Assembly (NCBI RefSeq): GCF_013694365.1
Contig: NZ_CP059275.1
Coordinates: 1,240,001 to 1,304,000, forward strand
DNA length: 64,000 nt
Reading direction: 5' to 3'
Source: Limosilactobacillus reuteri
Lineage (GTDB): Bacteria > Bacillota > Bacilli > Lactobacillales > Lactobacillaceae
This document shows positions 1-64,000 of the stretch, piece after piece (the first letter of the stretch is position 1; every line of letters starts with the position of its first letter). Under the pieces are notes generated by a model. The model was not told the origin of the DNA and made no database searches. It saw nothing but the letters and a program-made list of their open reading frames with translations. A program made the translations under genes and the position numbers.

Positions 1-768
1 TCTACTAAGTACTTGGGCAAGACAATTGATATTCATGCAGGGGGACAAGACCTTGAATTCCCTCACCATGAAAATGAGATTGCTCAAAGTGAAGCAGAAA
101 CAGGCCAAAAATTTGTTCGTTACTGGATGCATAATGGTTTCGTAACAATTGGAAAAGACAACGAGAAGATGAGTAAGTCTCTCCATAATTTCATTACTGT
201 TCATGAAATTATCAAGGAAGTAGATCCTCAGGTTTTACGTTTCTTTATGGCGACTACGCAATACCGGCGTCCAATTCAATATAGCCAGGCAAACCTAACT
301 GATGCGCAAAATAATCTTAATCACATTCAAATAGCCTTTGATAACTTGACTTATCGTGAACAAGATGCCGATGAGGGAGATGTTCAAGAAGTCACTGATC
401 GGCTTGAGCAATTCCATCACCAATTTATTACAGCAATGGATGATGACATCAATGTTCAAAACGGGATTGCCACAGTCTACGAATTAGTTAAATATGCAAA
501 TGTTTATGCTCAACAAGATAATGTTAGCTTAGGTGCCATTCAAGCAATCAAAAAAGAGCTTGTTGAATTGATGAGTATTTTTGGCGTTAAGCTTGAAGCA
601 AGTGACAATCAAATCAATGATGAAAAGATTAAGCAATTGATTGAAGAACGAAATATAGCACGGAAGAATAAAGATTTTGCGCGAAGTGATGAAATTCGAG
701 ACAATCTTAAAAAACAAGGGATTATTCTTGAAGATACTCCTCAAGGAACGCGTTACAAAAAGGAATAG
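1..768 (+). CDS. cysS: Cysteinyl-tRNA synthetase, C-terminal part (cut by window start)
   Basis: Charges tRNA-Cys with cysteine in the cytoplasm. The reading frame is open from base 1, so the N-terminal half, with the HIGH motif and part of the zinc site, lies outside the window. The visible 255 residues carry the conserved HAGGQDL and [11 protein letters not shown] segments, then KMSKS at about residues 56-60, the class I signature loop, and a helical C-terminal tRNA-binding domain. Full-length enzymes have about 470 residues. It is followed by yacL and radA, the reverse of the usual radA-yacL-(gltX)-cysS order in lactobacilli, and no gltX lies between them here. The family is certain. Confidence 0.96.
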
Positions 769-1917
769 ATGCGGCGTAGAATGATTACTCTCATTTATAT
801 TCTAGTTGGCGCGGCAGTGGGATTTTACTATTTGCCATTATTATGGGGGATTTTGAACATCGCTCTTAATCCGGCATTATTAGTATTTATCGACATTATT
901 ATTGGTGCACTTATTTTCTGGCTATTATCCCTCCCATTGGTTAGCGGCACTGAAAAGTTGATCCAGCGAATCGAAAAAGAACTAACAAAGCGTAGTCCTG
1001 TATACCTTTTCTTTGGGACTTTATTAACGATTATTGGCTTAGTTTTAGCAGTTCTTATTTCGATTCCATTGTGGAGAACGAGGATTCCGGTAATTAATAA
1101 TATTCTGCCGATCCTTCTAATGATTGTCTTTAGTTATTTTGGTTTTCGAATTGGTACGACGCGGTTAGATGATTGGCGTAAAGCATTTACCCATGCCAAA
1201 AGTAGTAAAACCGATGGTGGTAATGTGATTGAACGGCAAGATGATAATTATCACCATTATAAAATCCTAGATACAAATATTCTGATTGATGGACGCATTT
1301 ATGATTTAGTCAAAACGGGTTTTCTAGAGGGAACATTACTGGTTCCTAACTTTGTTTTATATGAATTGCAATATATCGCTGATTCTGGCGAAAGTATTAA
1401 GCGTGTTCGTGGGCGCCGTGGCCTTGATATTTTAAACAAGTTACGGAAAGAAAAAATTGTTCCAATCGAAATGTATGATGGAGACTTTGAAGATATTCCA
1501 GAGGTTGATAGTAAATTAATTGCCCTCGCTAAAGAAGTCAATGGGGTAATTGTGACAAATGATTATAACCTTAATAAAGTAATTCAATTCCAAAATGTTC
1601 AAGTATTGAATATTAATAACTTAGCAAAATCATTACGACCACGAGTTATTCCGGGCGAAACGATGACGGTTGTTGTTGTGAAAAAAGGAACTGAACGACA
1701 ACAGGGTGTTGCTTATCTTGACGATGGAACGATGGTGGTTGTTGAAGATGGTCGTTACTTTATGGATAAACAAATTGAAGTTGAAGTAACTAGTGCTCTT
1801 CAAACAGACGCTGGTCGAATGATCTTTGCTCGTCCGCTTCATTCACAACGAGGAATTGACGAGTATACGGATACGGAACATAAAGAAAACCGAAATAATA
1901 AAGATAAGAAAAAATAA
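769..1917 (+). CDS. yacL: PIN/TRAM-domain membrane protein, YacL family
   Basis: Integral membrane protein with a cytoplasmic PIN (RNase-like) domain and a C-terminal TRAM domain; the substrate is unknown. Four hydrophobic segments occupy roughly residues 5-130. The PIN domain begins with LDTNILIDGRI near residue 167, which supplies the first acidic metal ligand, and acidic residues recur around EVDSKLIALA and VTNDYNL. The TRAM domain is about residues 300-355. The tail is lysine and asparagine rich. The 382-residue length fits YacL. It sits next to radA as in most Firmicutes. The family is certain; the biochemical role is not. Confidence 0.9.
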   Translation: MRRRMITLIYILVGAAVGFYYLPLLWGILNIALNPALLVFIDIIIGALIFWLLSLPLVSGTEKLIQRIEKELTKRSPVYLFFGTLLTIIGLVLAVLISIPLWRTRIPVINNILPILLMIVFSYFGFRIGTTRLDDWRKAFTHAKSSKTDGGNVIERQDDNYHHYKILDTNILIDGRIYDLVKTGFLEGTLLVPNFVLYELQYIADSGESIKRVRGRRGLDILNKLRKEKIVPIEMYDGDFEDIPEVDSKLIALAKEVNGVIVTNDYNLNKVIQFQNVQVLNINNLAKSLRPRVIPGETMTVVVVKKGTERQQGVAYLDDGTMVVVEDGRYFMDKQIEVEVTSALQTDAGRMIFARPLHSQRGIDEYTDTEHKENRNNKDKKK

Positions 1918-3291
1918 ATGGCAAAAATTCGAACACAATATGTTTGCCAAAATTGTGGTTACAACTCACCACGCTACTTAGGCCGGTGTCCAAATTGTGG
2001 TGAGTGGAATACTTTAGTGGAAGAACAGGTAGAGACCAGTTCTGCACCAACCAAAAAAGCAACTACCACCTTAACCGGCTTAGTTGCCAAACCACAGAAA
2101 ATTAATGAGATTAATAGTACAGAGACTCCCCGTGTTAAAACAAAATTGAATGAGTTAAATCGCGTTTTAGGTGGAGGAATCGTTCCCGGATCACTAATTC
2201 TAATTGGAGGAGATCCGGGAATCGGAAAATCGACCCTCCTTTTACAAGTTTCCGGACAATTAAGTGATGAGCATCACCGGGTTTTATATGTGTCTGGAGA
2301 AGAAAGTGGGACACAAATTAAAATGCGGGCGGAACGATTAAAAGTTGCTGGGGATGACTTTTATGTATATCCAGAAACGAATATGGATAGTATTCGGGAT
2401 ACTATTCGTGACCTCAAGCCAGAGTATGTCGTGATTGACTCGGTACAAACGATGCAGGCGACTGATGTAAGTTCAGCAATTGGTAGTGTATCGCAAATTC
2501 GTGAAGTTACCGCCCAGTTAATGCAAATTGCTAAAAGTAATAACATTACGATTTTTGTCGTTGGACATGTGACAAAGGGCGGTGCAATCGCTGGTCCAAA
2601 GATCTTGGAGCACATGGTTGATACAGTCTTGTATTTTGAAGGAGACCTGCACCATACATATCGTATTTTGCGATCAGTGAAAAATCGATTTGGTTCAACT
2701 AACGAGCTTGGTATTTTTGAAATGCATACAAATGGGCTGACGGAAGTAAAAAATCCATCAGAAATCTTTTTAGAGGAACGATTACATGATGCAACCGGTT
2801 CAGCGGTGGTTGTTTCATTAGAAGGAACACGACCAATTTTAGTTGAAATTCAAGCGCTGGTAACACCGACCGTTTATGGAAATGCACAGCGAACTGCTAC
2901 CGGTTTGAGCCGAAACCGAGTATCATTGATAATGGCGGTATTAGAGAAACGTGCTAACCTAATGCTTCAAAATCAAGATGCTTACTTAAAAGCAGCTGGG
3001 GGCGTTAAGTTAGATGAGCCAGCAATTGATTTGGCAATTGCAGTAAGTATTGCCTCCAGTTATCGGGATAAAGGAACCAAGCCCACCGATGCGTTTGTCG
3101 GTGAGGTAGGTTTGACTGGGGAAATTCGCCGGGTAAACCGAATTGAACAGCGGGTTGCTGAAGCAGAAAAACTTGGCTTTAAGCGAATCTTTATTCCCAA
3201 AAATAATTTAAAGGGTTGGAAACCGTCAACTAATATTCAAGTAGTCGGTGTCTCAACGCTTAAAGAGGCGTTATATTTAGCGCTGGGGTAA
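1918..3291 (+). CDS. radA: DNA repair protein RadA (Sms)
   Basis: RecA-like, DnaB-like ATPase that promotes branch migration and processing of recombination intermediates. An N-terminal zinc finger uses C10, C13, C24 and C27. Walker A ([10 protein letters not shown]) is near residues 97-106. The RadA-specific KNRFG motif is at about 255-259. A C-terminal Lon-protease-like domain ends the 457-residue protein, which is full length. Neighbours yacL and the dUTPase match the conserved Lactobacillus cluster, in reversed order here. Confidence 0.97.
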
Positions 3292-3828
3292 ATGAAACGT
3301 GGATTTAAGATTGTTTCTAGTAAGAAAGACCAAGATATACATTTACCCCAACGCCAAACAACACGGGCGGCCGGATATGATTTTGAGGCATCGGAAGATT
3401 TCGTTCTGCCATCAATTTGGAAAGGCAATTTCTTAAAGGCGCTTTGGCAAATTCATCAACAAAAAAAGCTAACTGATGAAGAGTTTAAGGCTGCTGATTC
3501 CTGCTTAAAGCCATACTTAGTACCCACCGGCATCAAAGCCTATATGCAACCTGATGAATTTCTCTTATTAGCTAATCGGTCAAGTGGTCCTTTTAAACGG
3601 CGCCTGATTTTACCAAATGGAATCGGCATTGTGGATGCAGACTATTATGATAATGATAGTAATGAAGGGGAAATTTTCTTCCAGCTTATTAACTACGGGT
3701 TACGAGATTATCATATAAAAAAGGGAGAACGGATCGGTCAGGGGATTTTTATGCCTTATTTAACTGCTGATAGTGAAGAGCAACCAACCGCTAAACGGAC
3801 TGGCGGCTTCGGTTCAACAAAAGAATAA
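3292..3828 (+). CDS. dut: dUTP diphosphatase (trimeric dUTPase family)
   Basis: Hydrolyses dUTP to dUMP and pyrophosphate, keeping uracil out of DNA and supplying the dTMP precursor. Recognisable family motifs are AAGYDFEA (motif I), RSSGPFKRR (II), NGIGIVDADYYDN (III), the GERIGQGIFMPY region (IV) and the C-terminal glycine-rich KRTGGFGST (V). At 178 residues it is longer than the usual 145-150; the extra length is an insertion between motifs I and II, around residues 40-75. The gene before it is radA, as in other lactobacilli. Confidence 0.92.
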   Translation: MKRGFKIVSSKKDQDIHLPQRQTTRAAGYDFEASEDFVLPSIWKGNFLKALWQIHQQKKLTDEEFKAADSCLKPYLVPTGIKAYMQPDEFLLLANRSSGPFKRRLILPNGIGIVDADYYDNDSNEGEIFFQLINYGLRDYHIKKGERIGQGIFMPYLTADSEEQPTAKRTGGFGSTKE

Positions 3829-4125
3829 ATGCAATATCGAGTTGATGGTCAGCGGATCATTGCTTTTGACGATCAAGAACCCTTAGTTGGCGAGATCAGT
3901 TTTCCAAAAGTTCCTGATACAAATGATCACGTTGTCGTTGAACGCGTTTTTGTGCAACCAACTTACCGTGGGCAAGGAATTGCAGCTGAACTAGTGCGTC
4001 AATTTGTGGATTATGCAACAAAAGAGCAATATATCGTCAAGCTCATGTGTCCATATGCGGTAGCGCAATTCAAACTACATCCAGAATATCAGCAACTATT
4101 GCCAGTTGCAGATCGCTTTAATTAG
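3829..4125 (+). CDS. Small GNAT-fold acetyltransferase-like protein (YjdJ type)
   Basis: A 98-residue protein matching the short GCN5-related acetyltransferase type. It shows a beta-rich N-terminus, a conserved hydrophobic strand VVVERVFV, then the acetyl-CoA loop PTYRGQGIAAELV, and ends with CPYAVAQF and a short helical tail. Such proteins are thought to acetylate small molecules or to be minimal acyl-CoA binders; the substrate is unknown. It lies between dut and rpiA. Confidence 0.83.
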   Translation: MQYRVDGQRIIAFDDQEPLVGEISFPKVPDTNDHVVVERVFVQPTYRGQGIAAELVRQFVDYATKEQYIVKLMCPYAVAQFKLHPEYQQLLPVADRFN

Positions 4126-4809
4126 ATGGATCAAAATGCATTAAAAGAACAAACAGGTAAGGAATCAGTTAAGTACATTAAATCCGGGATGATCGTCGGT
4201 CTCGGAACTGGATCGACTGTTAAATATATGGTTGATGAACTTGGTAAGCAAGTCCAAGAAGGTAAAATCAAAGACATTATCGGTGTAACAACTTCAAACC
4301 GAACTGCTAAACAAGCACGCGACCTCGGAATTACAATTAAAGATATTGATGACGTTGACCACATCGATTTAACTATTGACGGGGCCGATGAAATCAGTGA
4401 TGACTTCCAAGGAATCAAAGGTGGCGGTGGCGCCCTCCTTTGGGAAAAGATCGTTGCCAATGTCTCAAATAAAGTAATGTGGATTGTCGATGAAAGCAAA
4501 CTCGTCCACAAACTTGGCGCTTTCCCCCTTCCTGTTGAAGTAATTCCATTCGGTTCTCAACATGTCTTTGACCGTCTTGAAAAGAAAGGCTACAAGCCAA
4601 CTTGGCGGATGGATGGAGATGAAAAGTTCCGTACTGATGAAAATAACTATATTATTGACCTTCATCTTGGCGAAATTGATGATCCTAAGGCCTTAGCTGA
4701 CGAATTGATCCACATGGTTGGAATTGTTGAAACTGGTTTATTCTTAAATCGAGTTAACGACGTAATTGTTGGTACTCCAGAAGGTCCAAAGGTATTGCAC
4801 GCCCGTTAA
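4126..4809 (+). CDS. rpiA: Ribose-5-phosphate isomerase A
   Basis: Interconverts ribose-5-phosphate and ribulose-5-phosphate in the pentose phosphate pathway, which feeds the phosphoketolase route used by heterofermenters. The sequence shows the phosphate-binding [11 protein letters not shown] loop, the catalytic DGADEI motif with the nearby [11 protein letters not shown] segment, and ends with the conserved [10 protein letters not shown]. The 227-residue length is normal for RpiA. The phosphoketolase gene at 40679 is the pathway partner. Confidence 0.97.
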
Positions 4810-6150
4810 ATGAGCTTTTCAATTAATAAAGAAGATATCGCTAGTTTTCATAAAAACTACCGTCATCACCCTAACAGCAGTGTCTTAGAAAATACTGTTA
4901 CAAAAAACGGTGTACGGAATGCCAGCTTTAATTGGCATTCAATTGCTGATAATACTCCTCATTTCTCTATTGACCTCAAGACGGGGGACGTTGCTGATCA
5001 AAAACAATCCGGTCGTTGTTGGATGTTTGCAGCACTGAACACAATGCGTCATGATATGCAGCAAAAATTTAACTTACCTGATAATTTTGAACTTTCCCAA
5101 GCCTACCAGTTCTTCTGGGATAAGTTTGAGAAATCCAATTATTTCTACCAAAACGTAATTAAGACTGCTAAAAAGCCTACCGACAGCCGAAAAGTTTCAT
5201 GGTTAATGAACGAACCACAAAACGATGGTGGCCAATGGGATATGCTTTGCGCCCTTATCAGCAAGTATGGGGTTATGCCAAAAGCCGCAATGCCCGAATC
5301 ATTTAACTCTTCTAACTCACGGGGAATTGATGAAGTCTTAAACAACAAGCTTCGTCACGATGCCGTTATTTTGCGAAAAATGATTAACGAAGATCATGCA
5401 AATGAAGAAGCAATTAACGAAACGCGCCGTAAGATGTTGAACGAGAATTACCGGATGCTTGCTTACACATTTGGTGAACCGGTTAGTCACTTTGACTTCG
5501 AATATCGGACAAAGAAGGACAACGAATTCCACTGCGATACTAACCTTACCCCACAAGAATTCTTCAAGAAGTATGTTGGCTGGAATCTTGATGATTATAT
5601 TTCAATTATCCAAGCACCAACTGCTGATAAGAAGTACCACCAAACTTACACCATCGATATGCTTGGTAATGTCGTTGGTGGCCGCGAAATCAAGCACTTA
5701 AACCTACCAATGGATGAATTCAAGCAACTCGCGATTGAACAATTAAAGAATGGCGAAAGTGTTTGGTTTGGTTCAGATGTTATTAAATATTCAGAAACTA
5801 AACTTGGGATTATGGCCCTTAACACCTATGACTACGACAAACTATTTGACGTTGATCTTGAAATGACCAAAGCTGAAGCACTTGATTATGGTGAAAGCAT
5901 GATGGATCACGCAATGGTTATCACTGGTGTTGACCTTGTTGATGGGAAGCCAACCAAGTGGAAAGTTGAGAACTCATGGGGTAATAAGGTCGGCCATAAA
6001 GGTTACTTTGTTATGAGTGATGATTGGATGGACAAATACTGCTACCAAGTCGTTATTAATAAGAAGTACCTTAGCGAAGATCTTAAACGTGATTACGCTA
6101 AGAGCCCTGTTGTTCTTAAGCCTTGGGATCCAATGGGAACTTTAGCATAA
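4810..6150 (+). CDS. pepC: Aminopeptidase C (bleomycin hydrolase family, C1B)
   Basis: Cytoplasmic cysteine aminopeptidase that trims peptides taken up during growth on protein. The papain-type triad is visible: Cys70 in QSGRCWMFAAL, His367 in DHAMVITG and Asn388 in ENSWGN. The 446-residue length is normal and there is no signal peptide, consistent with cytosolic hexameric PepC. A repeat element with two hairpins follows the stop codon directly. Confidence 0.97.
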   Translation: MSFSINKEDIASFHKNYRHHPNSSVLENTVTKNGVRNASFNWHSIADNTPHFSIDLKTGDVADQKQSGRCWMFAALNTMRHDMQQKFNLPDNFELSQAYQFFWDKFEKSNYFYQNVIKTAKKPTDSRKVSWLMNEPQNDGGQWDMLCALISKYGVMPKAAMPESFNSSNSRGIDEVLNNKLRHDAVILRKMINEDHANEEAINETRRKMLNENYRMLAYTFGEPVSHFDFEYRTKKDNEFHCDTNLTPQEFFKKYVGWNLDDYISIIQAPTADKKYHQTYTIDMLGNVVGGREIKHLNLPMDEFKQLAIEQLKNGESVWFGSDVIKYSETKLGIMALNTYDYDKLFDVDLEMTKAEALDYGESMMDHAMVITGVDLVDGKPTKWKVENSWGNKVGHKGYFVMSDDWMDKYCYQVVINKKYLSEDLKRDYAKSPVVLKPWDPMGTLA

Positions 6151-6313
6151 AAAGGGAGCAAGACAGAAGTCACTTGTGACTTCGTTTTTCGACGCGAAGC
6201 TAGCCTCTGGGAGCCCCCGCAAGCAACAATAGGCCTTCAGCGTTCGACTTTGCCGGACGCTGAAGGCCATTGTTGTACTGCGTTGTTCGTATTTTATGGA
6301 AGTAACCTAACTT
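6151..6313. repeat. Non-coding repeat-like element with two hairpins
   Basis: One of the few non-coding stretches left in the window. It begins with a short palindrome, GAAGTCAC (6166-6173) and GTGACTTC (6176-6183), followed by a T run that could act as a terminator. A second, strong stem pairs 6224-6242 with 6258-6275 (GGCCTTCAGCG with CGCTGAAGGCC, plus CAACAAT with ATTGTTG) with one bulged base. The 13-mer GACGCGAAGCTAG (6191-6203) also occurs in the repeats at 47450 and 61531 (there reversed), suggesting a related family. I see no coding potential. The right boundary is uncertain and could lie at 6322. Confidence 0.55.
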
Positions 6314-7114
6314 ATGTCACAGATGAAATTTTGGAAGAAAGCACTATTAACAATTGCAGCCTTAACAGTCAGTACCTCTGCAGGAATCACAAGTGTTTCT
6401 GCTGCTTCATCAGCTGTTAATTCAGAATTAGTTCATAAGGGAGAATTGACAATTGGCCTTGAGGGAACTTACTCCCCGTACTCTTACCGTAAAAATAACA
6501 AATTAACTGGCTTTGAAGTAGACCTTGGTAAAGCAGTTGCTAAAAAGATGGGCTTAAAAGCTAACTTTGTACCAACTAAATGGGATTCACTAATTGCCGG
6601 TCTTGGTTCAGGTAAGTTTGATGTAGTAATGAACAACATTACACAGACACCAGAACGAGCCAAGCAATATAATTTCTCTACTCCATATATCAAGTCACGG
6701 TTTGCATTAATTGTTCCTACTGATAGTAATATCAAGAGCTTGAAGGATATTAAAGGCAAGAAGATTATTGCTGGGACAGGAACTAATAATGCGAATGTGG
6801 TTAAAAAATATAAAGGCAGCCTTACACCAAATGGCGATTTTGCTAGTTCCTTAGATATGATCAAGCAAGGTCGGGCTGCCGGGACGGTTAACTCCCGTGA
6901 AGCTTGGTACGCTTACAGCAAGAAGAACAGTACTAAGGGTCTCAAGATGATTGATGTTTCTAGTGAACAAGATCCAGCTAAGATTTCAGCACTTTTTAAC
7001 AAGAAAGATACTGCTATTCGATCTTCCTACAACAAGGCACTTAAGGAACTTCAACAAGATGGAACAGTCAAGAAGCTATCTGAAAAGTACTTCGGTGCAG
7101 ATATTACTGAATAA
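6314..7114 (+). CDS. Amino-acid (probably cystine) ABC transporter substrate-binding protein
   Basis: Extracytoplasmic solute-binding protein of the polar amino acid family (SBP_bac_3). An N-terminal signal peptide of about 30 residues ends near SVSA-AS and has no lipobox cysteine, so the protein should be released or held non-covalently. The mature part is clearly lysine rich. Family features include LTIGLEGTYSPYSY, FEVDLGKAVA, and the FDVVMNNITQTPER hinge region. The second ATG at 6323 is an equally good start. The ATPase, permease and a cystathionine lyase follow, an arrangement recalling the BspA/Cyu cystine uptake locus of L. fermentum BR11; the cystine assignment is inference. Confidence 0.88.
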   Translation: MSQMKFWKKALLTIAALTVSTSAGITSVSAASSAVNSELVHKGELTIGLEGTYSPYSYRKNNKLTGFEVDLGKAVAKKMGLKANFVPTKWDSLIAGLGSGKFDVVMNNITQTPERAKQYNFSTPYIKSRFALIVPTDSNIKSLKDIKGKKIIAGTGTNNANVVKKYKGSLTPNGDFASSLDMIKQGRAAGTVNSREAWYAYSKKNSTKGLKMIDVSSEQDPAKISALFNKKDTAIRSSYNKALKELQQDGTVKKLSEKYFGADITE

Positions 7115-7864
7115 ATGAAATTAACAAATATTAATAAAAGTTTTGGTAATAAAAATGTCTTGAAAAATACCACGTTAGAGTTTCCTGCAGGTAAAACAAC
7201 AGTAATGGTTGGTCCATCTGGATCTGGTAAATCAACAATTCTCCGCTCACTTAACTTATTAGTAATACCAGAGAGCGGCCAATACGATTTTGATGATCAT
7301 CATTTGGATTTTAGTCAAAAAGTAAGCAATAAAGATAAGTTGGCAATTCGTCAAGAAACAGGGATGGTTTTCCAAGACTACAATCTTTTCCCTAATAAAA
7401 CTGTCCTTGGTAACATTATTGAAGGACCAACACAGGTTTTGAAACAGGCGAAAAAGGAAGCAATTGCAAACGCGCATAATTTACTTGCTAAAGTGGGCTT
7501 AGCAGATTACGGAGATGCCTATCCGAATGAATTATCTGGCGGACAGGCACAGCGGGTGGCGATTGCTCGGGCACTGGCAATGTCACCAAAGTATATCTTA
7601 CTGGATGAACCGACTTCTGCCCTTGATCCGGAATTAGAGCTTAGTGTATTGAAGGTCCTGTTGCAATTAGCTGAAGAAAAACAATCAATGGTAATTGTTA
7701 CTCATAACATGGTCTTTGCGAAACATGTTGCGGATAAGATTATTTTTGTCGAGAACGGCGAAATTTTATATGATGGTACTCCAGACGAGTTTTTTGCTCC
7801 AGATAATCCAAACAAACGAATTAAAAACTTTATCGCCTCGATGACAATGGAAAATTTAAAATAA
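7115..7864 (+). CDS. Amino-acid ABC transporter ATP-binding protein
   Basis: Cytoplasmic ATPase of a polar amino acid importer. The motifs are complete: Walker A GPSGSGKST near residues 30-38, Q-loop VFQDYNLFPN, signature LSGGQAQR, Walker B YILLDEPTSALDPE and H-loop VTHNM. At 249 residues it is a typical single-domain GlnQ-type subunit. It lies between the binding protein and the permease, so the three form one importer. Confidence 0.93.
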   Translation: MKLTNINKSFGNKNVLKNTTLEFPAGKTTVMVGPSGSGKSTILRSLNLLVIPESGQYDFDDHHLDFSQKVSNKDKLAIRQETGMVFQDYNLFPNKTVLGNIIEGPTQVLKQAKKEAIANAHNLLAKVGLADYGDAYPNELSGGQAQRVAIARALAMSPKYILLDEPTSALDPELELSVLKVLLQLAEEKQSMVIVTHNMVFAKHVADKIIFVENGEILYDGTPDEFFAPDNPNKRIKNFIASMTMENLK

Positions 7865-15990: not shown

Positions 15991-15993
15991 CTA

Positions 15994-30676: not shown

Positions 30677-31765
<1,089 letters not shown>

Positions 31766-51606: not shown

Positions 51607-52065
51607 ATGAAGATGTCAGTAGCTGATTATTTGTCACAGTTGACGAGCGATCAGGTTGTGACAGAAGAAGTTGAAAAAACTGCTGCCCAATCACAGCAAA
51701 AAACAGTATTAACAACTGCAATTAATTTTATGATTGAACAGCTTGATACGGGACACCTTGGTCAATATAAGATGAATATTAAAATGAAAAAAGGTGATCC
51801 AGTTAGCTTTCGCTTAGAAACCAACCTAATCAACATACCGATGGATGAGGCAGAGCGATTAGATGTTAAATTATTGGATAAAGAGATCGAGTACCCTGTT
51901 AATCTTTATTTAGTAATGGAGAGTGAAGATATTAATAAAACGGGATTGCGGATCGATGAATTAGCAAATGAAACCGATCAAAGTGGAAAGACAACTGATT
52001 TGATTACTAAAGCTCAAGAATGGGTAGCCGAACACCTTGCAGATATAATGGAAGCAAGAGCATAA
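51607..52065 (+). CDS. Unrecognised soluble protein, 152 residues
   Basis: No family recognised. Acidic, soluble, no signal peptide; it starts with a helical segment (MSVADYLSQLTSDQVV) and ends with another (ITKAQEWVAEHLADIMEARA). It was natively coupled to the upstream four-helix membrane protein, so the two probably act together. Confidence 0.65.
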   Translation: MKMSVADYLSQLTSDQVVTEEVEKTAAQSQQKTVLTTAINFMIEQLDTGHLGQYKMNIKMKKGDPVSFRLETNLINIPMDEAERLDVKLLDKEIEYPVNLYLVMESEDINKTGLRIDELANETDQSGKTTDLITKAQEWVAEHLADIMEARA

Positions 52066-54828: not shown

Positions 54829-56241
54829 ATGCTTCAAGAAATTAATGCTATTTTTCAAACTTTTGGCGCGAGTGTAGTTGTCCCAATAATAATTTTTATC
54901 ATTGCTTTATTACTACGAGTGCAGCCTAAGACAGCAATGATGAGTGCTTTCTATGCTGGTGTCGGTTTAACTGGTTTTACCTGGATTATCACAGAATTTA
55001 CGCCAGTGGTGACTAAGATTGTCCGCCAAATGGTTGATAATACGGGGATTAAACTACCAGTGGTTGATATCGGCTGGCAAGCAGGGTCATTAGCAGCGTT
55101 TGGATCAACGGTTGGTTTATCGTTTTTTGTTTTTGGATTACTAACTGAATTAATTTTATTTGCGCTTGGCGTTACCAAAGTATTTCTGCCTTCTAATATT
55201 TGGAATAATTTTGGGTATATGATTTGGGGCACGCTAGCTTTTTATGTAACTCATAATTATTGGCTATCATTAGGGCTGGAATTTTTTATGCTCCTGTACT
55301 CACTAGTCTTAGCGGAAATTCAAGCAGATCGGTGGGCAGACTATTATGGAATTGAGAATACCACCGTCGACTCCTTACATAATATCGAGCAAGTGGTTCC
55401 AGCGATTATTTTAGATCCGTTATGGAATTTACTGGGATTTAACAAAGTGAAAATGACTCCTAAAGATTTTCAGAAAAAACTAGGTGTCTTTGGGGAACCA
55501 ATTACAATGGGAATTATCCTGGGATTAATAATTGGGATCTTGGGTAATTTATCTTCACTGGGGAAAATAAGCGCTTGGGGACAGATTACTAAATTTGCGA
55601 TTCAATTAGCTGCCGTTATGGCGATCTTTCCCCTTGTTACAAACGTATTCGCAAAGGCATTTATTCCCATCGCGAATGAAATTGATGAGCAGCAGAAAAA
55701 ACGACATGGCGAAAATAAAAATAGCCGTTATGATAAAAAGCGGTGGTTCCTAGCTGTTGATGATGGCGTTGGCTATGGAGAATCAGCCACTTTAATTTCA
55801 GGAATCATTTTAATCCCGATTATGGTTTTAATTGCTTTTATTCTTCCTGGCAATAAGACCCTTCCGGTAGTTGATTTAATTGCAATTCCGTACATGATTG
55901 AATCAATTGTCGCGGTGACTCGTGGAAATATCTTAAAAGTAATTGCGACGGGAATTGTGTGGTTTAGTTTAGGCTTATATGCGGCCAGTTGGCTCAGTCC
56001 GGTCTATACTGCAGCAGTGGCCCACTATGGCGTTGCAATTCCAACCGGGGTAGTCCTGGTAACAAGCTTTAACTTAGTAGCACGACCATTGAATGCATTG
56101 GTTTTTGCTGCCTTTATATCAGAAAGTCCCGTTTGGATTTCACTAGCAGTTATCATTTACCTTGTGATGTTGTTCGGATTACGGAAATATCGTTCGCAAA
56201 TTTGGCACTACCTTAATAAGATGGCTATGAAGAATGCCTAG
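54829..56241 (+). CDS. PTS IIC component, galactitol (GatC) family
   Basis: Sugar-transporting membrane subunit of 470 residues with about 12 hydrophobic segments. GFTWIITEFTPVV and DIGWQAGSLAAFGSTVG match GatC-type IIC proteins. No IIA or IIB gene lies in the window, so it is an orphan here; it may work with subunits encoded elsewhere. Confidence 0.85.
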   Translation: MLQEINAIFQTFGASVVVPIIIFIIALLLRVQPKTAMMSAFYAGVGLTGFTWIITEFTPVVTKIVRQMVDNTGIKLPVVDIGWQAGSLAAFGSTVGLSFFVFGLLTELILFALGVTKVFLPSNIWNNFGYMIWGTLAFYVTHNYWLSLGLEFFMLLYSLVLAEIQADRWADYYGIENTTVDSLHNIEQVVPAIILDPLWNLLGFNKVKMTPKDFQKKLGVFGEPITMGIILGLIIGILGNLSSLGKISAWGQITKFAIQLAAVMAIFPLVTNVFAKAFIPIANEIDEQQKKRHGENKNSRYDKKRWFLAVDDGVGYGESATLISGIILIPIMVLIAFILPGNKTLPVVDLIAIPYMIESIVAVTRGNILKVIATGIVWFSLGLYAASWLSPVYTAAVAHYGVAIPTGVVLVTSFNLVARPLNALVFAAFISESPVWISLAVIIYLVMLFGLRKYRSQIWHYLNKMAMKNA

Positions 56242-56433
56242 ATGAAAGCATTAGTAGTTGAAAAAGCGTCAGCTCGTTCATTGCAAGATTTGAATTTTGC
56301 GGAAGTCTCGGTTCCTACGCCAGCTGAACATAAAGTTCTAATCAAGGTGCATGCTGCTGGGCTTAATCCGGTCGACTATAAAATTGTTGAAGGCGGCGTT
56401 AGTGCTTGGCAGTATCGCTATCCAACTTGCTAA
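56242..56433 (+). pseudogene. Zinc-type alcohol dehydrogenase (quinone oxidoreductase-like), N-terminal fragment
   Basis: The first 63 codons of an MDR-family oxidoreductase: MKALVVEKAS through the GroES-like start, HAAGLNPVDYKIVEGG, then SAWQY followed by out-of-frame residues and a stop. The central catalytic-domain part is missing. It overlaps the next fragment by 32 nt natively, and the overlap appears twice in tandem (56402-56433 and 56434-56465). Confidence 0.85.
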
Positions 56434-56958
56434 GTGCTTGGCAGTATCGCTATCCAACTTGCTAAACTTCATGGTTGTAAGGTGTTTACAACTGTTTCAT
56501 CTAGTAAATATGACTATGTAAAGCAGCTTGCTCCAGATACAATCATCAACTATCAAACTGAAGATGTGGATAAAAAGTTAGCCGATCTCACCGATGGGCT
56601 TGGCATTGATTTGATCATTGATACGGTAGGTAAAAAAGAAGCAGAACTTGATTTGTGGCGGTTAGCCTATAATGGACGCTTAGTAACGATTGTTGACGTT
56701 CCTTCACTTGATAATGTTCCAATGTTTGATCGCGGTCTAGGGATAGATGTCGTTAATCTTGGTGGGGCGCATCTCAGTGGCAACCCATATCAGCAAGCTG
56801 ATTTGGGCCGAATGAATGCGGAAATGTTAAAATTAATAGCTAATGGGGATGTAAAGCCTTTGATTGAGAAGGTGATTCCGTTTGATCAAATTATTGAGGG
56901 TTTAACAGCGATTAAAAATCATGAAGTAGTCGGAAAATTAGTGGCTAAAATTGATTAA
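56434..56958 (+). pseudogene. Same alcohol dehydrogenase, C-terminal fragment
   Basis: A 174-codon frame starting GTG that encodes the cofactor-binding domain from the middle of the Rossmann fold (GSIAIQLAKLHGCKVFTT) through DLIIDTVGKKEAE to a complete C-terminus. The usual A-x-G-G-V-G start of this domain and roughly 80 to 100 residues before it are gone. With the 63-codon fragment it is one gene broken by an internal deletion and frameshift, so inactive. Confidence 0.85.
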
Positions 56959-57816
56959 ATGAATCCTAAAAAATTAAAACAGCTAAAAAAGCGGGTAAAA
57001 AAAGCTCATCAAATTGTTAATGAGCCTTCATATATTCAAGAACTAAATACTTACCGCGACCTATTCGATGACTTTCCTCCTGTAAAATACCTCATTAATA
57101 ATGTTTTAGAAAGTGATCGATTACTCAAAAACGGCTTATTGCCACAACCTCTACCAAAATTATTATTGCCGGATAACATTCAAGATGCCATTTTCAAAAA
57201 GGTTAATGAACAGTTCCCACAAGGTGATCCACGTGGCGATAAACTTTGGAATAAATATAGTGAGGCGTTGCCAAAATTAGATAAGGCGTTGCGCAACTAT
57301 CGTGATTATCTCGAGGAAACATACGGAATGTGGTCATACGTCAATGCACCTTTTGCCAATGCACTTTCTGATTATTTAGGTGGGGCACCGACATTAGAGA
57401 TTATGGCCGGTAATGGTTATATTTCTAAGGGATTACGCAATAACAATGCCACCCAAAAGATTTATACTACCGATAGTCAGGCATGGATAAAAGAAAATGA
57501 AACGGGCAAACACCCTGTCACTAAGATTGAGAAGTTGGACGCTCTAGAAGCGATCAAAAAGTATGGTGACGAGGTCGAATATGTCATTATGTCATGGGCT
57601 CCCGACAAGGGTGAAATTGACTGGGAGGTCCTGCAACTTCTTCGTTCAACATTCCCTGAAGTCAAATTATTAGTTATTGGCGAAAAAGATGGCGCAACTA
57701 ACTCTAAGAAATTCTGGCAAGAAGCCCAATTGAGTCAAGACGATGAGTTACAGAAAGTTAATGCTAACTTGCACTCGTTTGACTTGATTGATGAACAGAT
57801 TTATCTAGCGAAATAA
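56959..57816 (+). CDS. SAM-methyltransferase-like protein
   Basis: A 285-residue soluble protein. The central segment LEIMAGNGYISKGLR resembles a class I methyltransferase SAM-binding loop, followed by an acidic strand and VEYVIMSWAPDKGEID in the position of motif IV. An N-terminal helical, lysine-rich region of about 130 residues precedes it. The target is unknown. It lies next to an XRE regulator. The methyltransferase label is motif based and moderate. Confidence 0.65.
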   Translation: MNPKKLKQLKKRVKKAHQIVNEPSYIQELNTYRDLFDDFPPVKYLINNVLESDRLLKNGLLPQPLPKLLLPDNIQDAIFKKVNEQFPQGDPRGDKLWNKYSEALPKLDKALRNYRDYLEETYGMWSYVNAPFANALSDYLGGAPTLEIMAGNGYISKGLRNNNATQKIYTTDSQAWIKENETGKHPVTKIEKLDALEAIKKYGDEVEYVIMSWAPDKGEIDWEVLQLLRSTFPEVKLLVIGEKDGATNSKKFWQEAQLSQDDELQKVNANLHSFDLIDEQIYLAK

Positions 57817-58230
57817 ATGTTTCCAGAACGCCTACGAGCACTTCGCAAAGGACAAAAGATAACCTTAAAGGAGCTTGCTACCCATCTCAATGAAAACCTT
57901 GGCCCCAATGAAAAACCAAACACTGCTTCACAAATCGGTAACTGGGAACGCGGTATTCGGACCCCGTCATACGTTGAAGCACGAAAACTAGCCGAATTCT
58001 TTGATGTCAGTCTGGACTATCTTACCGGAAAAACTGATCGTGATGATTTTGACTTAGCAAAATTATTTTTCTCTAGTAAGAACCTGTCGTTTAATCAAAC
58101 TGTACTTTCAAGTGATGATCGATATGAAATTTTTCAACTAATCGATGGTTACTTAAAGGGACGACATAATCGCCGGGATACGGACACCTTCTATGGTAAG
58201 CAAGAGCAACTAGATTTAAAACTTAAATAA
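57817..58230 (+). CDS. XRE-family transcriptional regulator
   Basis: A 137-residue regulator. HTH at residues 5-65 (ITLKELATHLNENLG, ASQIGNWERGIRTPSYVEA, FFDVSLDYLTGKTDR), then a helical C-terminal region of unknown role. Similar to phage-type and stress regulators. Target unknown. Confidence 0.88.
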   Translation: MFPERLRALRKGQKITLKELATHLNENLGPNEKPNTASQIGNWERGIRTPSYVEARKLAEFFDVSLDYLTGKTDRDDFDLAKLFFSSKNLSFNQTVLSSDDRYEIFQLIDGYLKGRHNRRDTDTFYGKQEQLDLKLK

Positions 58231-59211
58231 ATGGGGTTAATTATTTTGGAAACAAAGACAAAAAAGAAACGGCGGCATCCTTGGCGATGGCTCATTGGAA
58301 TTGTAGTTGTAATCGCTGTGGCAATCTTTGCCGCTAGTAGCTATTTTTTCTCGGTGGCAATGGTACCGGGGCATAAGGATTTTATTAATAATTCAACTAA
58401 AATTTCACGAAATGATCCATTGTATGAGCAGAAAATGTGGTTTAAGCATGCCAAAAAAGAAAAATGGACAATGAAATCGGCTAGTGGAAATTATAAACTA
58501 GTTGCTGATTACATCCCTGCTGCTAAACCGACAACTAAAAATGTGGTAATTGCCCATGGATTTATGGGTAACAAAGAGAAGATGGGCGAATATGCCGCGC
58601 TTTTCCATCAGATGGGGTATAATGTTCTAATGCCAGATGCGCGTGCTCATGGTCAAAGCCAAGGGAAATACATTGGTTATGGATGGCCAGAGCGTTACGA
58701 TATTCGCAAATGGATTAATAAACTTATTCGGCATAATGGGGAAGATAGCCAAGTAGTCTTATTTGGTGTTAGCATGGGTGGTGCGACAACAATGATGACT
58801 AGTGGCATTAACCTTCCGTCACAAGTAAAAGCATTTGTCGAAGATTGTGGATATACGAGTCTTAATGATGAATTGAATTATGAAGCCGGTAATTTATATG
58901 GGATTCCGAAGTTTTTACGGGTGCCATTAATAAGTACGATGAGTTTAATTAATCGGGTGAAGAATGGTTTTTACATTCATGAAGCTAGCTCCTTAAATAT
59001 GCTGCATCATAATCATCGTCCAATGCTATTTATCCATGGAGCAAAAGATAATTTTGTTCCAACTGAAATGGTTTATCGCAATTACCGTGCAACAGAGGGA
59101 AGTAAAGAATTGTGGGTAGTGCCAGGAGCAGCGCACGCGAAGTCATATGCGACCCATCCTAGCGAATATCGGCGCCATTTGACAAAATTTTTAGATCACT
59201 ATATTAAATAG
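58231..59211 (+). CDS. Membrane-anchored alpha/beta hydrolase
   Basis: A 326-residue serine hydrolase with a basic N-terminus (KTKKKRRHPWRW) and one transmembrane helix at about residues 21-45; the catalytic domain is probably outside the cell. The nucleophile is in FGVSMGGATTM, acid in HGAKDNFVP, histidine in AAHAKSY. HGFMGNK is the oxyanion loop. Related to BAAT/peptidase S9-like hydrolases common in lactobacilli. Substrate unknown. Confidence 0.88.
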   Translation: MGLIILETKTKKKRRHPWRWLIGIVVVIAVAIFAASSYFFSVAMVPGHKDFINNSTKISRNDPLYEQKMWFKHAKKEKWTMKSASGNYKLVADYIPAAKPTTKNVVIAHGFMGNKEKMGEYAALFHQMGYNVLMPDARAHGQSQGKYIGYGWPERYDIRKWINKLIRHNGEDSQVVLFGVSMGGATTMMTSGINLPSQVKAFVEDCGYTSLNDELNYEAGNLYGIPKFLRVPLISTMSLINRVKNGFYIHEASSLNMLHHNHRPMLFIHGAKDNFVPTEMVYRNYRATEGSKELWVVPGAAHAKSYATHPSEYRRHLTKFLDHYIK

Positions 59212-59568
59212 ATGCTTGCAATTATTGTTACGATGTTTGTTGCAATCGAACATTTAGGTATTATGGCCTTAGAAATCTTTGGTAACCCGGCACAGCAAGC
59301 CAAGGCGTTTGACTTACCGCTTAAGTTTACGCAACAGCATGAAGCACGGGTTTCATTTGCTAACCAGGGGATTTATAACGGCGCCTTAGGAGCAGCTATC
59401 ATCGCCAGTTACTGGTTATTTAGTGGGGCAACCTTAGTATTAGTATGGCGAATGCTCTTGGTTTTTGTGATGGTTGTTGCATTATTTGGTGCACTTACTG
59501 CAACCAAAAAAATTATTCTAATTCAATTTTTACCAGCATTGATTGCTTTTTTACTTACATTTCTTTAA
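59212..59568 (+). CDS. DUF1304-family membrane protein
   Basis: A 118-residue protein with four predicted helices and the family pattern EHLGIMALEIFG near the start and NQGIYNGALG in the middle, matching DUF1304. Function unknown. Confidence 0.85.
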   Translation: MLAIIVTMFVAIEHLGIMALEIFGNPAQQAKAFDLPLKFTQQHEARVSFANQGIYNGALGAAIIASYWLFSGATLVLVWRMLLVFVMVVALFGALTATKKIILIQFLPALIAFLLTFL

Positions 59569-61530
59569 ATGGAAATGATTTTAGGCATTGTTCTTCTATT
59601 GACTGCTGTTGTTGCAGCTAATGTTGTTCATCTTGTTTACCCTAAGATTCCACTATCCATCTATCAAATTATTGCAGGAATTCTTTTAGCATCCCTGCCT
59701 ACTGAGGCCACTAACTTTACCATGCATCCAGAATTATTCATGATGGTGATCATTGCTCCTTTAATGTTTAATGACGGGCAGAACCAATCATTCCGTTATC
59801 TTTCAAGCAATATCAAATCGATCCTATCAATGACTGTTGGATTAGCACTTGTAACGGTTTTGATTACTGGTAGTTTTTTACACTGGCTTCAACCAGGAAC
59901 GTTCTCCTTAGCACTCGCCTTTATGTTGGCTGCGATTGTTACGCCGACTGATGCGGTCGCTGTAAAGTCAATTACTACTAATATGAAAGTACCGAAAAAC
60001 GTTAATGGTGCTCTGGAATATGAATCCCTCTTTAATGATGCATCGGGAATTGTGCTTTTAGATTTGGCGCTGGAAACCTACCGTTCTGGACAATTTTCGC
60101 TTGGTCATGGAATCTGGATCTTTGTTTATGTTTTCTTTGGCGGAATTATCTTCGGAGCAGTGTTAGGGAGTCTGTTAATTAGTCTCCGTACTAGTTTGAT
60201 GCGAAAACATGTTGATATTGGCTCCATCGTTATTCCGATCAACGTAATGACTCCCATCGTTGTTTACTGGTTAGCTGAAGAACTACACCTTTCAGGAATC
60301 CTAGCCGTCGTTGCAGCGGGAGTTGTTCATAGTATCCTCTATGATCGAATGCGGCTTACATCTACTAAAGTGCAAATGTCTACTACCACTATTTGGAACA
60401 TCATTAGCGATGCGTTAAACGGGTTAGTATTTGTTCTTTTAGGGGTGATGCTTCCGCCGGTACTTGGAAGGACTTCTTGGCAAAATCTGGGTGCAATCGT
60501 TGCCTTAGCCTTTGCTATCTATATTATTACAACCCTTTTAAGATTCTTATGGGTCCGGTTTAAGCTCGTCAACATTCAATCGACTAACCTCAACCGTGAT
60601 AGTCTCTTAATGGCGTTAGGAGGAATTCACGGAACAATCACTCTGGCATTGGCTTTCTCGCTGCCAGTTCTGATTAACAACCATCAATTTGCGTTCCGTA
60701 ATTCAATGATCTTGATTGCCGCAATTGTTATTTTGATTAGTATTGCTGTTGGCGCAATTGGGTATCCAATTATTTTACCGCCTAAATCTAAGAGTTATTC
60801 GAAGAGTGAATTTCAAAAAGAACTTATTAAAACAGTTCAATATGCTATTAATGAGCTACGGACTTCAGAAAAATATTCCCCAGAAAAAGCCGTTGTTATT
60901 GACCAATTGAGTAGTCAAATGACGCAATACCACGAATTTAATCGTAATGTTTATAGTCAATTAATGGGTAAAGCTCATCAAATTGAATTAGCTACCTTAG
61001 ACCGACTTAACGAAGAAGGCCGAATCTCTGACAAGGAGGCCAAATTCCTCGTTAATTTTGTTACGCGGTCGATTTTCCGCGTAAATAAACACAGCTTTCT
61101 TGAATTATGGATCATCTTATGGCACCGGTTAAAATGGCGTTTTATTCGCTACCGCCATCTCAAAAAAGGATCCCGCTATAATGTGGGACCAAAATATCAA
61201 TTAACCAAGGAACAGCGCGCTGAAACAGCTGAGATCCTAGAAATAATTAATCGTGAAATCGATAAATACCTTCATTTGATTGAAACTCCACAAAACGCGA
61301 ATGAAGTTGCCATGGTACGACGGACGTACTTCCAACGAAAACGATTCTTCCTCCACGATATTTCGATGGATACCGACCTCATTACTTCTTTATTTATTGA
61401 GGCATTTCAGCTTGAACATAGTTATGTTCAAATGCAACTTGCCGATGACCAATTTTCACAAGAATTAGCAAACGCATTAAACGAACAGATCTCAACTGAT
61501 GAATTGGTTTATACTCAATCATTAGACTAA
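59569..61530 (+). CDS. Na+/H+ antiporter, NhaP/CPA1 family
   Basis: Cation-proton antiporter of 653 residues. About 12 helices occupy residues 1-410, with TPTDAVAVKS and FNDASGIVLLD carrying the ion-binding acidic residues (the N-D motif). A long, charged, helical cytoplasmic C-terminus of some 240 residues follows, rich in lysine and arginine. This is the size of CPA1 antiporters used in pH and salt homeostasis. Confidence 0.92.
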   Translation: MEMILGIVLLLTAVVAANVVHLVYPKIPLSIYQIIAGILLASLPTEATNFTMHPELFMMVIIAPLMFNDGQNQSFRYLSSNIKSILSMTVGLALVTVLITGSFLHWLQPGTFSLALAFMLAAIVTPTDAVAVKSITTNMKVPKNVNGALEYESLFNDASGIVLLDLALETYRSGQFSLGHGIWIFVYVFFGGIIFGAVLGSLLISLRTSLMRKHVDIGSIVIPINVMTPIVVYWLAEELHLSGILAVVAAGVVHSILYDRMRLTSTKVQMSTTTIWNIISDALNGLVFVLLGVMLPPVLGRTSWQNLGAIVALAFAIYIITTLLRFLWVRFKLVNIQSTNLNRDSLLMALGGIHGTITLALAFSLPVLINNHQFAFRNSMILIAAIVILISIAVGAIGYPIILPPKSKSYSKSEFQKELIKTVQYAINELRTSEKYSPEKAVVIDQLSSQMTQYHEFNRNVYSQLMGKAHQIELATLDRLNEEGRISDKEAKFLVNFVTRSIFRVNKHSFLELWIILWHRLKWRFIRYRHLKKGSRYNVGPKYQLTKEQRAETAEILEIINREIDKYLHLIETPQNANEVAMVRRTYFQRKRFFLHDISMDTDLITSLFIEAFQLEHSYVQMQLADDQFSQELANALNEQISTDELVYTQSLD

Positions 61531-61704
61531 TTTTTTCAACAGCCTCTTTATTTATACGAACATTGTTAAGATATCGTGGAACTAGCTTCGCGTCGTAACC
61601 ACAAGGCTCGAGGCTAAGTCCGAACGATAATCAGCCCGTGCCGTGCTAATCACCGTTCTATCCTTAGCCCACCGCCTTGTCGAGGAGGTTAATTCCCACT
61701 TACT
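61531..61704 (+). repeat. Interspersed structured repeat, copy C
   Basis: The most complete copy: 174 nt following the antiporter stop. A long hairpin spans 61601-61680: ACAAGGC with GCCTTGT, GGCTAAG (61612-61618) with CTTAGCC (61663-61669), and GAACG with CGTTC further in. The first two pairs share one exact axis. It contains CTAGCTTCGCGTC at 61582-61594. AGGAGGT at 61683-61689 lies 15 nt before the next GTG and could be a weak ribosome binding site. Confidence 0.87.
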
Positions 61705-62046
61705 GTGAACGATAATAATTTAACGGACCGGATCGTTAATGCTTTATCCTATTTAAGCATCTTATTTTTACCAGTTATCTTTCCACTAATCGTGTGGATA
61801 ATTGCCAAAAGCAGTGATCGACCAACTATTGCTAAAAACGCTCGCTATGCATTTTGGAGTCAAATTTTCCCATTGTTATATGTAATAGGCGCAATTTTAG
61901 TCTTTAGTGTCTTTTCATTAAACCCCGCTAACTTCCACGGGGGCGCATTGTTTGGAATTCTCCTAACATTTGCTCTTTTATTAGCCCTTTTGTTATTTAT
62001 TTATAATATTGCCATGGCCGTGAAAATGCTGATTGGCCGTGAGTAA
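61705..62046 (+). CDS. DUF4870-like small membrane protein
   Basis: A 113-residue protein with three predicted helices and the pattern VNALSYLSILFLPVIFPLIVW plus NARYAFWSQI, resembling DUF4870 proteins. GTG start directly after the repeat. Function unknown. Confidence 0.75.
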   Translation: MNDNNLTDRIVNALSYLSILFLPVIFPLIVWIIAKSSDRPTIAKNARYAFWSQIFPLLYVIGAILVFSVFSLNPANFHGGALFGILLTFALLLALLLFIYNIAMAVKMLIGRE

Positions 62047-62700
62047 ATGAATCCTAGTTTAAAATTATTACTTGTTATTTTGCTTTCACTTGAGCTGACT
62101 TTTGTAACTAAGCTGTGGATTAACCTGATTGTCATTGTAATGTGTTTGCTAATCCTTATTCATCAGCGATTTCACTGGCGACAATTTTGCTGGTTGGCTT
62201 TTGTCCCCCTCTTTCCGGCACTAGCTATTTTTATTACAATTGTCTTCTTCAGTCCTAGTCACAGTTTTTTTGATGGAACTGCTCTTTTTAGTCGACTTTA
62301 CGTTTATGTCTGCCTTGGAACGGCCTTTACATTTACAACCGATACCTTAACGCTTGCTCGCTCATTAGAACAAAATTGTCACCTTCCTAGCAAATACGCT
62401 TATGGGGTGCTCGCCGCTCTTAATCTGATTCCGAAAATGAAACAAGCCGTTACAACTATTTATACGGCCGGACAAATGCGGGGTGTTAATTTACATTGGT
62501 GGTCACCAACGCTCTACTTCAAAGCGATTCTGGTTGCTATTCAATGGTCGGATCAATTAGCACAAGCCATGGAATCACGCGGTTTCGTAGAAGGACAAGC
62601 ACGAACAGCTACCGTAAATATCCCGATTACCAGCCACGATTGGCTTTCTTTTTTAAGTATTATTTGCCTTGTACAGATAATTGTAATTGCGTTCCCTTGA
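62047..62700 (+). CDS. ECF transporter transmembrane (T) component
   Basis: CbiQ/EcfT-type scaffold subunit of 217 residues with four to five helices. The two cytoplasmic arginine-glycine motifs, AGQMRGVN and AMESRGFV, couple the membrane to the ATPases. The next gene is a double-domain ECF ATPase. No substrate-binding S component is identifiable in the window. Confidence 0.88.
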   Translation: MNPSLKLLLVILLSLELTFVTKLWINLIVIVMCLLILIHQRFHWRQFCWLAFVPLFPALAIFITIVFFSPSHSFFDGTALFSRLYVYVCLGTAFTFTTDTLTLARSLEQNCHLPSKYAYGVLAALNLIPKMKQAVTTIYTAGQMRGVNLHWWSPTLYFKAILVAIQWSDQLAQAMESRGFVEGQARTATVNIPITSHDWLSFLSIICLVQIIVIAFP

Positions 62701-64000
62701 ATGCGATTTAATGATCTTTCATTTAATTTTGATCAGCAACCAATCCTTAAAAATATCACCGCTGAATTTACGGCCGGAAAGATTCACTTACTTACCGGGG
62801 TTTCGGGGAGCGGTAAATCCACCATTCTCAAGTTAATCGCTGGTCTCCTGCCTAAATATGGTGGTGAAATAGTTGCGGGAGCAGTCGATGTACCAACAGA
62901 TGCCCAAATTGGGATGGTATTTCAAGATCCGTTAATGCAATTTGCCCTTGATACGCCACGCCACGAATTAGAATTCACCCTAGAAAATTGCCAAGTACCA
63001 ACCGACAAAATCCCAGAACGTGTTAAAAAAGCTTTACGATTTGGTAAAGTTGATGATCTTGCTAATCGATTAATCACCACTCTTTCTGGTGGGCAACAGC
63101 AGCGCGTGGCTTTAGCAGCTGCTACGGCAATACAACCAAACGTGCTTTTATTAGACGAACCCTTTGCCAATATTGATGAAGAAAACCGCCAACTTATCCT
63201 TAAACAATTAGTCCGCCTCAGCAGTGACTATCACACAACAATTATCATTACTGACCACGATTTGCATGGTTACGAGCAACTACATCCACTGGTTTGGCAA
63301 TTAACTAAGGGACACCTTGCCCAGCTTTCCAGTAAAAATAGAAACCAACTTTTGACAGCGAGCGCTACTCCTCAAATTACCACTGTCCTTCCCCTGTCAA
63401 CATTGCCCGCGATTATCAAATTTGATGAATTAGCAATAAAACGAGATAATCATTCCTTACTTTTACCAACCAATTTAGGCATTGTTAAAAATAAAATAAC
63501 TTTATTAACGGGACCAAATGGGATTGGTAAATCTACCCTTCTAAAGGCAATTGCCCGGCTTTTGAAATATGAAGGAAAAATTGACTATGAGGGGGAAAAC
63601 ATTCAAAAAATATCACCTGGGAAATATTACAAGCATCTGGGACTAATTTTTCAACATGCAAACGATCAATTCCTAAATGTAACTGTTGGCGAAGAACTGG
63701 CATTAGGCTTTAAAACTTGCCAGAACCCCTATTTTAATCAACAACAAGTCAACGAAGCATTAGCAGCTCTTGGTCTGAACGGAAGAGAAGATCAAGTTGT
63801 TTATTCTTTGAGTGGTGGTCAAAAGAAAAAGCTGCAAATCCTGCTGATGTTAATGCGCGGACAAGAAACCTTATTGCTTGACGAACCATTTACTGGTTTA
63901 GATCCAACATCTTTAAAGACTGTCCTGCAACTAATCAAAGCATCCCAAAAAGAAAAGCCACAAACTTTGTTGATTGTTAGTCATCAATTAAGCGGACTTG
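62701..64000 (+). CDS. ECF transporter ATPase with two fused domains (cut by window end)
   Basis: Two ABC ATPase domains in one chain, YkoD-like; 433 codons are visible and the frame is open at the window end. Domain 1 has Walker A GVSGSGKST (about residue 33), signature LSGGQQQR and LLLDEPFANID. Domain 2 has GPNGIGKST (about residue 271), signature LSGGQKKK and LLLDEPFTGLD. It pairs with the T component before it to energise uptake of an unknown vitamin or metal. Confidence 0.92.
   Translation, partial: MRFNDLSFNFDQQPILKNITAEFTAGKIHLLTGVSGSGKSTILKLIAGLLPKYGGEIVAGAVDVPTDAQIGMVFQDPLMQFALDTPRHELEFTLENCQVPTDKIPERVKKALRFGKVDDLANRLITTLSGGQQQRVALAAATAIQPNVLLLDEPFANIDEENRQLILKQLVRLSSDYHTTIIITDHDLHGYEQLHPLVWQLTKGHLAQLSSKNRNQLLTASATPQITTVLPLSTLPAIIKFDELAIKRDNHSLLLPTNLGIVKNKITLLTGPNGIGKSTLLKAIARLLKYEGKIDYEGENIQKISPGKYYKHLGLIFQHANDQFLNVTVGEELALGFKTCQNPYFNQQQVNEALAALGLNGREDQVVYSLSGGQKKKLQILLMLMRGQETLLLDEPFTGLDPTSLKTVLQLIKASQKEKPQTLLIVSHQLSGL

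What the first reader, a model, noticed from the sequence alone, without database searches (positions are those of the whole stretch)
1..64000. Window looks like concatenated, re-oriented features rather than native chromosome
Seen directly: at dozens of junctions the stop codon is followed at once by a start codon (TAAATG, TAGATG), all genes read on +, and no Shine-Dalgarno site precedes them. Where genes overlap natively, the shared bases occur twice. Natural genomes do not have zero spacing at almost every gene while keeping tRNAs and repeats. All order-based operon inferences must allow for lost strand and spacing.
Basis: partly seen in the sequence, partly recalled or inferred. Interest (0 to 1): 0.85.

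Follow-up and report, generated by a model that had tools for sequence, protein, structure and literature searches.

The report
Genome record of glued annotated features
This stretch is not a real chromosome but a file artefact: the annotated genes, tRNAs and repeats of a Limosilactobacillus reuteri-group bacterium appear to have been cut out, each gene turned to read forwards, and joined end to end without the DNA that lies between them.

Summary
In the window 52 of 61 neighbouring genes abut with zero spacing; the 9 other gaps hold tRNAs or repeat DNA, one with a truncated gene end. Of 67 features, 64 match native stretches of a relative (G046, 94.7% identity), one of them over 11% of its length. 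Of 56 abutting pairs mapped, 0 abut there, 11 lie on opposite strands and 7 overlap; 16,173 native spacer bases are missing, 11,620 of them in five gaps over 1 kb that may be gene-content differences. Duplicated overlaps, missing Shine-Dalgarno sites and a missing small-RNA gene agree. It affects the whole 2,085,667-base record: 19 of 20 sampled 20-kb stretches show it; the last is a pile of repeat pieces. T-box matches fall from 26-28 in four relatives to one weak match. New here: the surviving non-coding DNA is repeats, so the source was probably a feature list that included repeat regions, from a draft assembly. Not biology; a data-quality warning.

The parts
1..29490 (+). First block: features of one parent contig in contig order, genes each turned to + (genes, tRNA-Leu, tRNA-Gln, tRNA-Tyr, tRNA-Asn, one repeat piece). 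Up to 29157 it corresponds to native G046 C3 about 328 to 368 kb, descending
3829..6150 (+). Three genes natively on the opposite strand to their neighbours; strand information lost
   Evidence: native - between native + neighbours
9710..11287 (+). Two genes that natively overlap by 26 bases; the shared bases occur twice (start of the first, end of the second)
13058..15904 (+). Two genes with a 17-base native overlap written twice
6151..6313 (.). Retained non-coding dispersed repeat (163 bases), probably exported as a repeat feature; G046 has no copy at this place
   Evidence: 24 matches in G000, 28 in G046 (some are short or inverted part-matches)
29491..30312 (.). Repeat-type piece 29491-29979 followed at once by an open frame 29980-30312 that is the reverse complement of its end; probably one native stretch written twice
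   Evidence: both map to G046 C3:1777458-1777943 in opposite senses; G046 has a second copy at 1794332, so two different native copies are not excluded
30313..30578 (.). About 130 bases present twice head to tail (repeat-type pieces) near the junction of two parent contigs
   Evidence: native position jumps from C3 about 328 kb to about 1,872 kb
30677..64000 (+). Second block: features of another parent contig, genes all turned to + although the native strands alternate
47450..47615 (.). Retained non-coding dispersed repeat, inverted relative to the copies at 51036 and 61531; G046 has a copy at the same place (between its homologues of 46547-47449 and 47616-49553)
51036..51168 (.). Retained non-coding dispersed repeat; G046 has a copy at the same place
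61531..61704 (.). Retained non-coding dispersed repeat; G046 has no copy at this place
   Evidence: 10 matches in G000, 26 in G046
52065..52066 (.). Zero-spacing junction where the native relative has 233 bases holding a small-RNA gene (Ref68/Lacto-3 family); absent here

Best explanation
The record to which the window belongs is a concatenation of annotated features, not a chromosome. Shown: genes, tRNAs and repeat pieces stand in contig order, genes each in their own reading orientation, without between-gene DNA and with overlaps written twice, in the window; the same zero spacing is seen in 19 of 20 stretches sampled over the record. Inferred: a draft assembly of an L. reuteri-group strain was annotated with a pipeline that also lists repeat regions (RAST or a similar one); someone exported the nucleotide sequences of all features, removed the headers, and deposited the joined text as one 'chromosome'. 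Contigs or ends rich in repeats became the repeat pile at the end of the record.
For: G046: 0 of 56 abutting pairs abut natively, 11 change strand, 7 overlap. L002 at 96.7-100% identity: 17 junctions, 15 gaps, 2 overlaps; blocks run backwards in order while genes align forwards. Overlap duplication 4 of 61 against 2 of 3,422. SD-like motifs 2 of 27 against 19 of 27. T-box matches at E <= 0.001: 1 (40.6 bits) in G000, against 27, 28, 26 and 26 in four relatives. A Ref68/Lacto-3 small-RNA gene lies in the native gap at a zero-spacing junction. GC skew positive in 20 of 20 own stretches, while 5 of 15 G046 chromosome stretches are negative. End of the record: 98.3% of the last 20 kb has another copy in the own sample, 78.6% an inverted copy.
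Against: Nothing found contradicts the concatenation itself. The pipeline (RAST) and the act of deposition are inferred; no record title or accession was available. Retained repeats include pairs of only about 88% identity, lower than the 95% cut-off that I recall for the SEED repeat caller, so the caller may be another. Three features found no match in the fetched native stretches (29995-30312, 31766-32224, 35798-38002) and one matched over 11% only (29158-29490). Of the 16,173 native spacer bases missing, 11,620 lie in five gaps over 1 kb that may be gene-content differences or a match to another tRNA copy. Only about 25% of the record was read.
Confidence: 0.985

Rival explanations
1. Only genes were concatenated (CDS and RNA export), and the non-coding pieces are short unannotated contigs kept whole.
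For: Repeat pieces are densest at the end of the record and at the contig junction near 29,491-30,676. The doubled stretch at 29491-30312 could be two contig-end copies of one repeat, since G046 has two copies.
Against: Repeat pieces also lie inside gene blocks: 47450 and 51036 stand between the same neighbour genes as their copies in G046, which stray contigs would not do. The pieces at 6151 and 61531 are inside blocks too, but G046 has no copy there, so they do not add to this point.
Confidence: 0.15
2. A real, extremely compacted genome with one-directional, gapless genes.
For: Taken alone, the window has 52 of 61 zero-spacing junctions, and the unguided count puts 60 of 61 ORFs on +.
Against: Relatives at about 95-99% identity have normal spacing and both strands. 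Flipped genes, exact duplicated overlaps and absent SD sites would need dozens of precise events at once; T-box matches fall to one weak one.
Confidence: 0.002
3. The window was altered by the scan's own preparation, not in the public record.
For: No accession could be seen, and the own genome bears no title.
Against: The held genome itself (G000, 1 contig of 2,085,667 bases) contains the window at 1240001-1304000 and shows the same structure elsewhere. The repeat pile at the end and the contig-break structure do not look like a masking or shuffling step. The other genomes examined, from the same collections, look normal.
Confidence: 0.03

Closest known systems
Feature-sequence FASTA export (for example an .ffn file or a RAST/SEED feature DNA file; recalled, no call names it) joined into one sequence
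   Same: Genes in coding orientation, in contig order, no between-gene DNA, overlaps duplicated, RNA genes included
   Different: Repeat-type pieces are included, so this is more than a plain CDS file; the exact pipeline is not identified
Native L. reuteri-group chromosome (G046, unnamed; L004 titled Limosilactobacillus reuteri WF-AA1-C)
   Same: Gene content and order over the mapped stretches, 94.7% nucleotide identity to G046
   Different: Native spacing, both strands, cis-regulatory RNAs, and a GC skew that changes sign

Membership tests
Concatenated-feature artefact | Zero spacing at most junctions, far above native relatives | tested here: met
   52 of 61; relatives 4 junctions in 28 loci
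Concatenated-feature artefact | Natively opposite-strand neighbours both read + | tested here: met
   11 of 56 abutting pairs, one on a weak match that L002 backs
Concatenated-feature artefact | Native overlaps duplicated | tested here: met
   4 of 61 exact, at least 8 bases; control 2 of 3,422; 4 of the 5 G046 overlaps of at least 9 bases
Concatenated-feature artefact | Non-feature DNA (leaders) absent over the whole record | tested here: met
   T-box: 1 weak match against 26-28 in four relatives; other leader families were not searched genome-wide
Export from a repeat-calling annotation pipeline (RAST-like) | Retained non-coding pieces are repeats elsewhere in the genome | tested here: met
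   The 6 non-tRNA gaps hold DNA with further copies; for 30313-30578 the only other copy seen is its own double beside it
Export from a repeat-calling annotation pipeline (RAST-like) | Feature table of the record naming RAST | not testable with these tools
Native Limosilactobacillus chromosome | Collinear with native relatives through gene junctions | tested here: not met
   0 of 56 junctions
Native Limosilactobacillus chromosome | GC skew changes sign between replichores | tested here: not met
   20 of 20 own stretches positive (L093-L095 not computed); G046 10 positive, 5 negative of 15 chromosome stretches

The most novel reading that the evidence does not exclude
A feature-concatenated record stands as the single held genome of its species in a reference set built from GTDB. 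It carries good quality values (100% complete, 0.96% contamination), as gene-based checks would give. Any large-scale study of spacing, strand, regulatory RNAs or GC skew that uses it inherits false 'losses', and further such records may exist unflagged (none was looked for here beyond the relatives examined).
Probability: 0.5. Interest if true: 0.3.

Novelty: not a real feature. Interest (0 to 1): 0.15.

Why it matters
Every claim from this window that rests on spacing, strand, promoters, terminators, leaders or overlaps is unsafe; claims about single gene sequences are not affected. The record has good gene-based quality values, so it can enter reference sets unnoticed. T-box count, GC-skew sign or zero-spacing fraction would flag such records quickly.

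Tried and rejected
A 34.9-kb query was over the length limit; it was run as two shorter queries. Naming the public record: a paper search for the exact length gave 0 papers, and a search of genome announcements listed 10 of 17 papers, of which only the listing and abstract starts were seen, none recognisably this record. Searches for prior reports of such concatenated records (10 of 41 papers listed; 2 of 3 listed; listings only) showed nothing on point. A search for L. reuteri palindromic intergenic repeat elements gave 0 papers. GC skew of the window alone does not discriminate (0.056, within the native range); only the sign over the whole record does. The Rfam scan of the window found only 4 tRNAs. 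In the native counterpart the L10 leader and the TPP riboswitch lie outside the mapped span, so only the Ref68/Lacto-3 gene counts as a removed element there.

Full report
What was checked. The window is bases 1240001-1304000 of a one-contig assembly of 2,085,667 bases, listed as 100% complete. Reading the first 6 kb shows stop codons followed at once by ATG. Tiling the + strand ORFs by hand gives 62 genes and 61 junctions, 52 with zero spacing. The 9 remaining gaps hold tRNAs (15905; 26038 and 26110; 29082) or repeat-type DNA, one with a truncated gene end. A mechanical count of 'stop, then start of another long frame' gives 51 of 70 in the window, 319 of 458 over 20 stretches of 20 kb spread over the record, and 4 in total, both strands, in 28 loci of relatives, all around one gene. 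Nineteen of the 20 own stretches hold 9 or more such junctions; the last 20 kb holds 1.

Comparison with native DNA. Five loci of the L. reuteri group or nearby (L002-L006, including L. reuteri WF-AA1-C and L. balticus) align to window 13-29 kb in blocks that end at or within some bases of the gene borders. Native between-gene DNA is absent, and the block order runs backwards while the genes align forwards (the exceptions are the gene at 29158 and some repeat hits in L003 and L005). This is what results if genes of a minus-strand region are each reverse-complemented but kept in contig order. L002, 96.7-100% identical, shows 15 gaps of 7-339 bases and 2 overlaps at 17 junctions. In G046 (unnamed, 3 contigs, chromosome-sized contig of 2,074,924 bases), 64 of 67 features map to the fetched stretches, 43 on + and 21 on -, at 94.7% length-weighted identity; one (29158-29490) maps over 11% only. 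Of 56 abutting window pairs with both members mapped, none abut in G046, 11 change strand, 7 overlap, and 16,173 bases of native spacing are absent. Five gaps over 1 kb make up 11,620 of these; they are probably gene-content differences or, at the tRNA-Asn, a match to another tRNA copy, so the sum is an upper figure.

Independent signs. Shine-Dalgarno-like motifs of 5 or more bases precede 2 of 27 starts in the window and 19 of 27 of the same starts in G046. Overlaps of 26, 17, 17 and 32 bases are written twice (4 of 61 neighbour pairs; 2 of 3,422 control pairs). At 52065/52066 the relative has 233 bases that hold a Ref68/Lacto-3 small-RNA gene at the Rfam gathering score; the window has none. 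Over whole genomes, T-box matches number 27, 28, 26 and 26 in four relatives, and the own record has one weak match. GC skew is positive in all 20 own stretches tested, while 5 of 15 G046 chromosome stretches are negative, as expected when every gene is turned to +.

The non-coding DNA that survived is repeat DNA. The pieces at 6151-6313, and at 47450, 51036 and 61531, belong to two dispersed families with many copies in both genomes. Two of the four (47450, 51036) stand between the same neighbour genes as copies in G046; the other two have no copy there. At 29491-30312 a repeat piece is followed by the reverse complement of its end, as an open frame; both match G046 C3:1777458-1777943, in opposite senses. 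This is most simply one native stretch exported twice, as a repeat and as a gene, but G046 has a second copy, so two native copies are not excluded. The last 20 kb of the record are almost wholly repeated pieces (98.3% with another copy in the own sample, 78.6% with an inverted copy), including a 5S rRNA gene followed after 3 bases by its own reverse complement. The simplest account is an export of all features from a pipeline that also lists repeat regions. RAST-type annotation is my guess from memory; no call names it. Between 29157 and 30677 the native position jumps from about 328 kb to about 1,872 kb, next to the native rRNA and tRNA cluster, where short-read drafts usually break (general knowledge). 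The parent was therefore probably a draft.

Verdict. Gene sequences remain usable, and order within a block is contig order; strand, spacing and most regulatory DNA are lost. No paper describing this record was found in the searches made (listings and abstract starts only).

Noticed in passing
window 6151-6313; 47450-47615; 51036-51168; 61531-61704: Two dispersed non-coding repeat families (about 163 and 174 bases) sharing a short core (CGACGCGAAGCTAG on one strand; not in the shortened copy at 51036). Matches, part-matches included: 24 in G000 and 28 in G046 for the first, 10 and 26 for the second. As RNA the first folds far better than shuffles (z -5.77), the second moderately (z -2.66). Possibly REP- or MITE-like elements; function not studied.
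   Followed up: partly
window 28524-29081: Two adjacent frames (28524-28967 and 28968-29081) are one contiguous stretch in G046, overlapping by 4 bases; probably a disrupted gene called as two features.
   Followed up: no
window 30677-40678: Identity of the mapped genes to G046 drops to about 80-83% here, against mostly 92-99% elsewhere, and two genes (31766, 35798) find no match; in keeping with a divergent or exchanged segment.
   Followed up: no
L067 (record 2065668-2085667): End of the record is a pile of repeated and inverted pieces: group II intron parts and 5S rRNA in both senses, and, named by eye, transposase fragments and adhesin-type repeats.
   Followed up: partly
G000:C1:1768127-1768277: The only T-box-like match in the own record (40.6 bits, below the family cut-off); it may have survived inside a called feature.
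   Followed up: no
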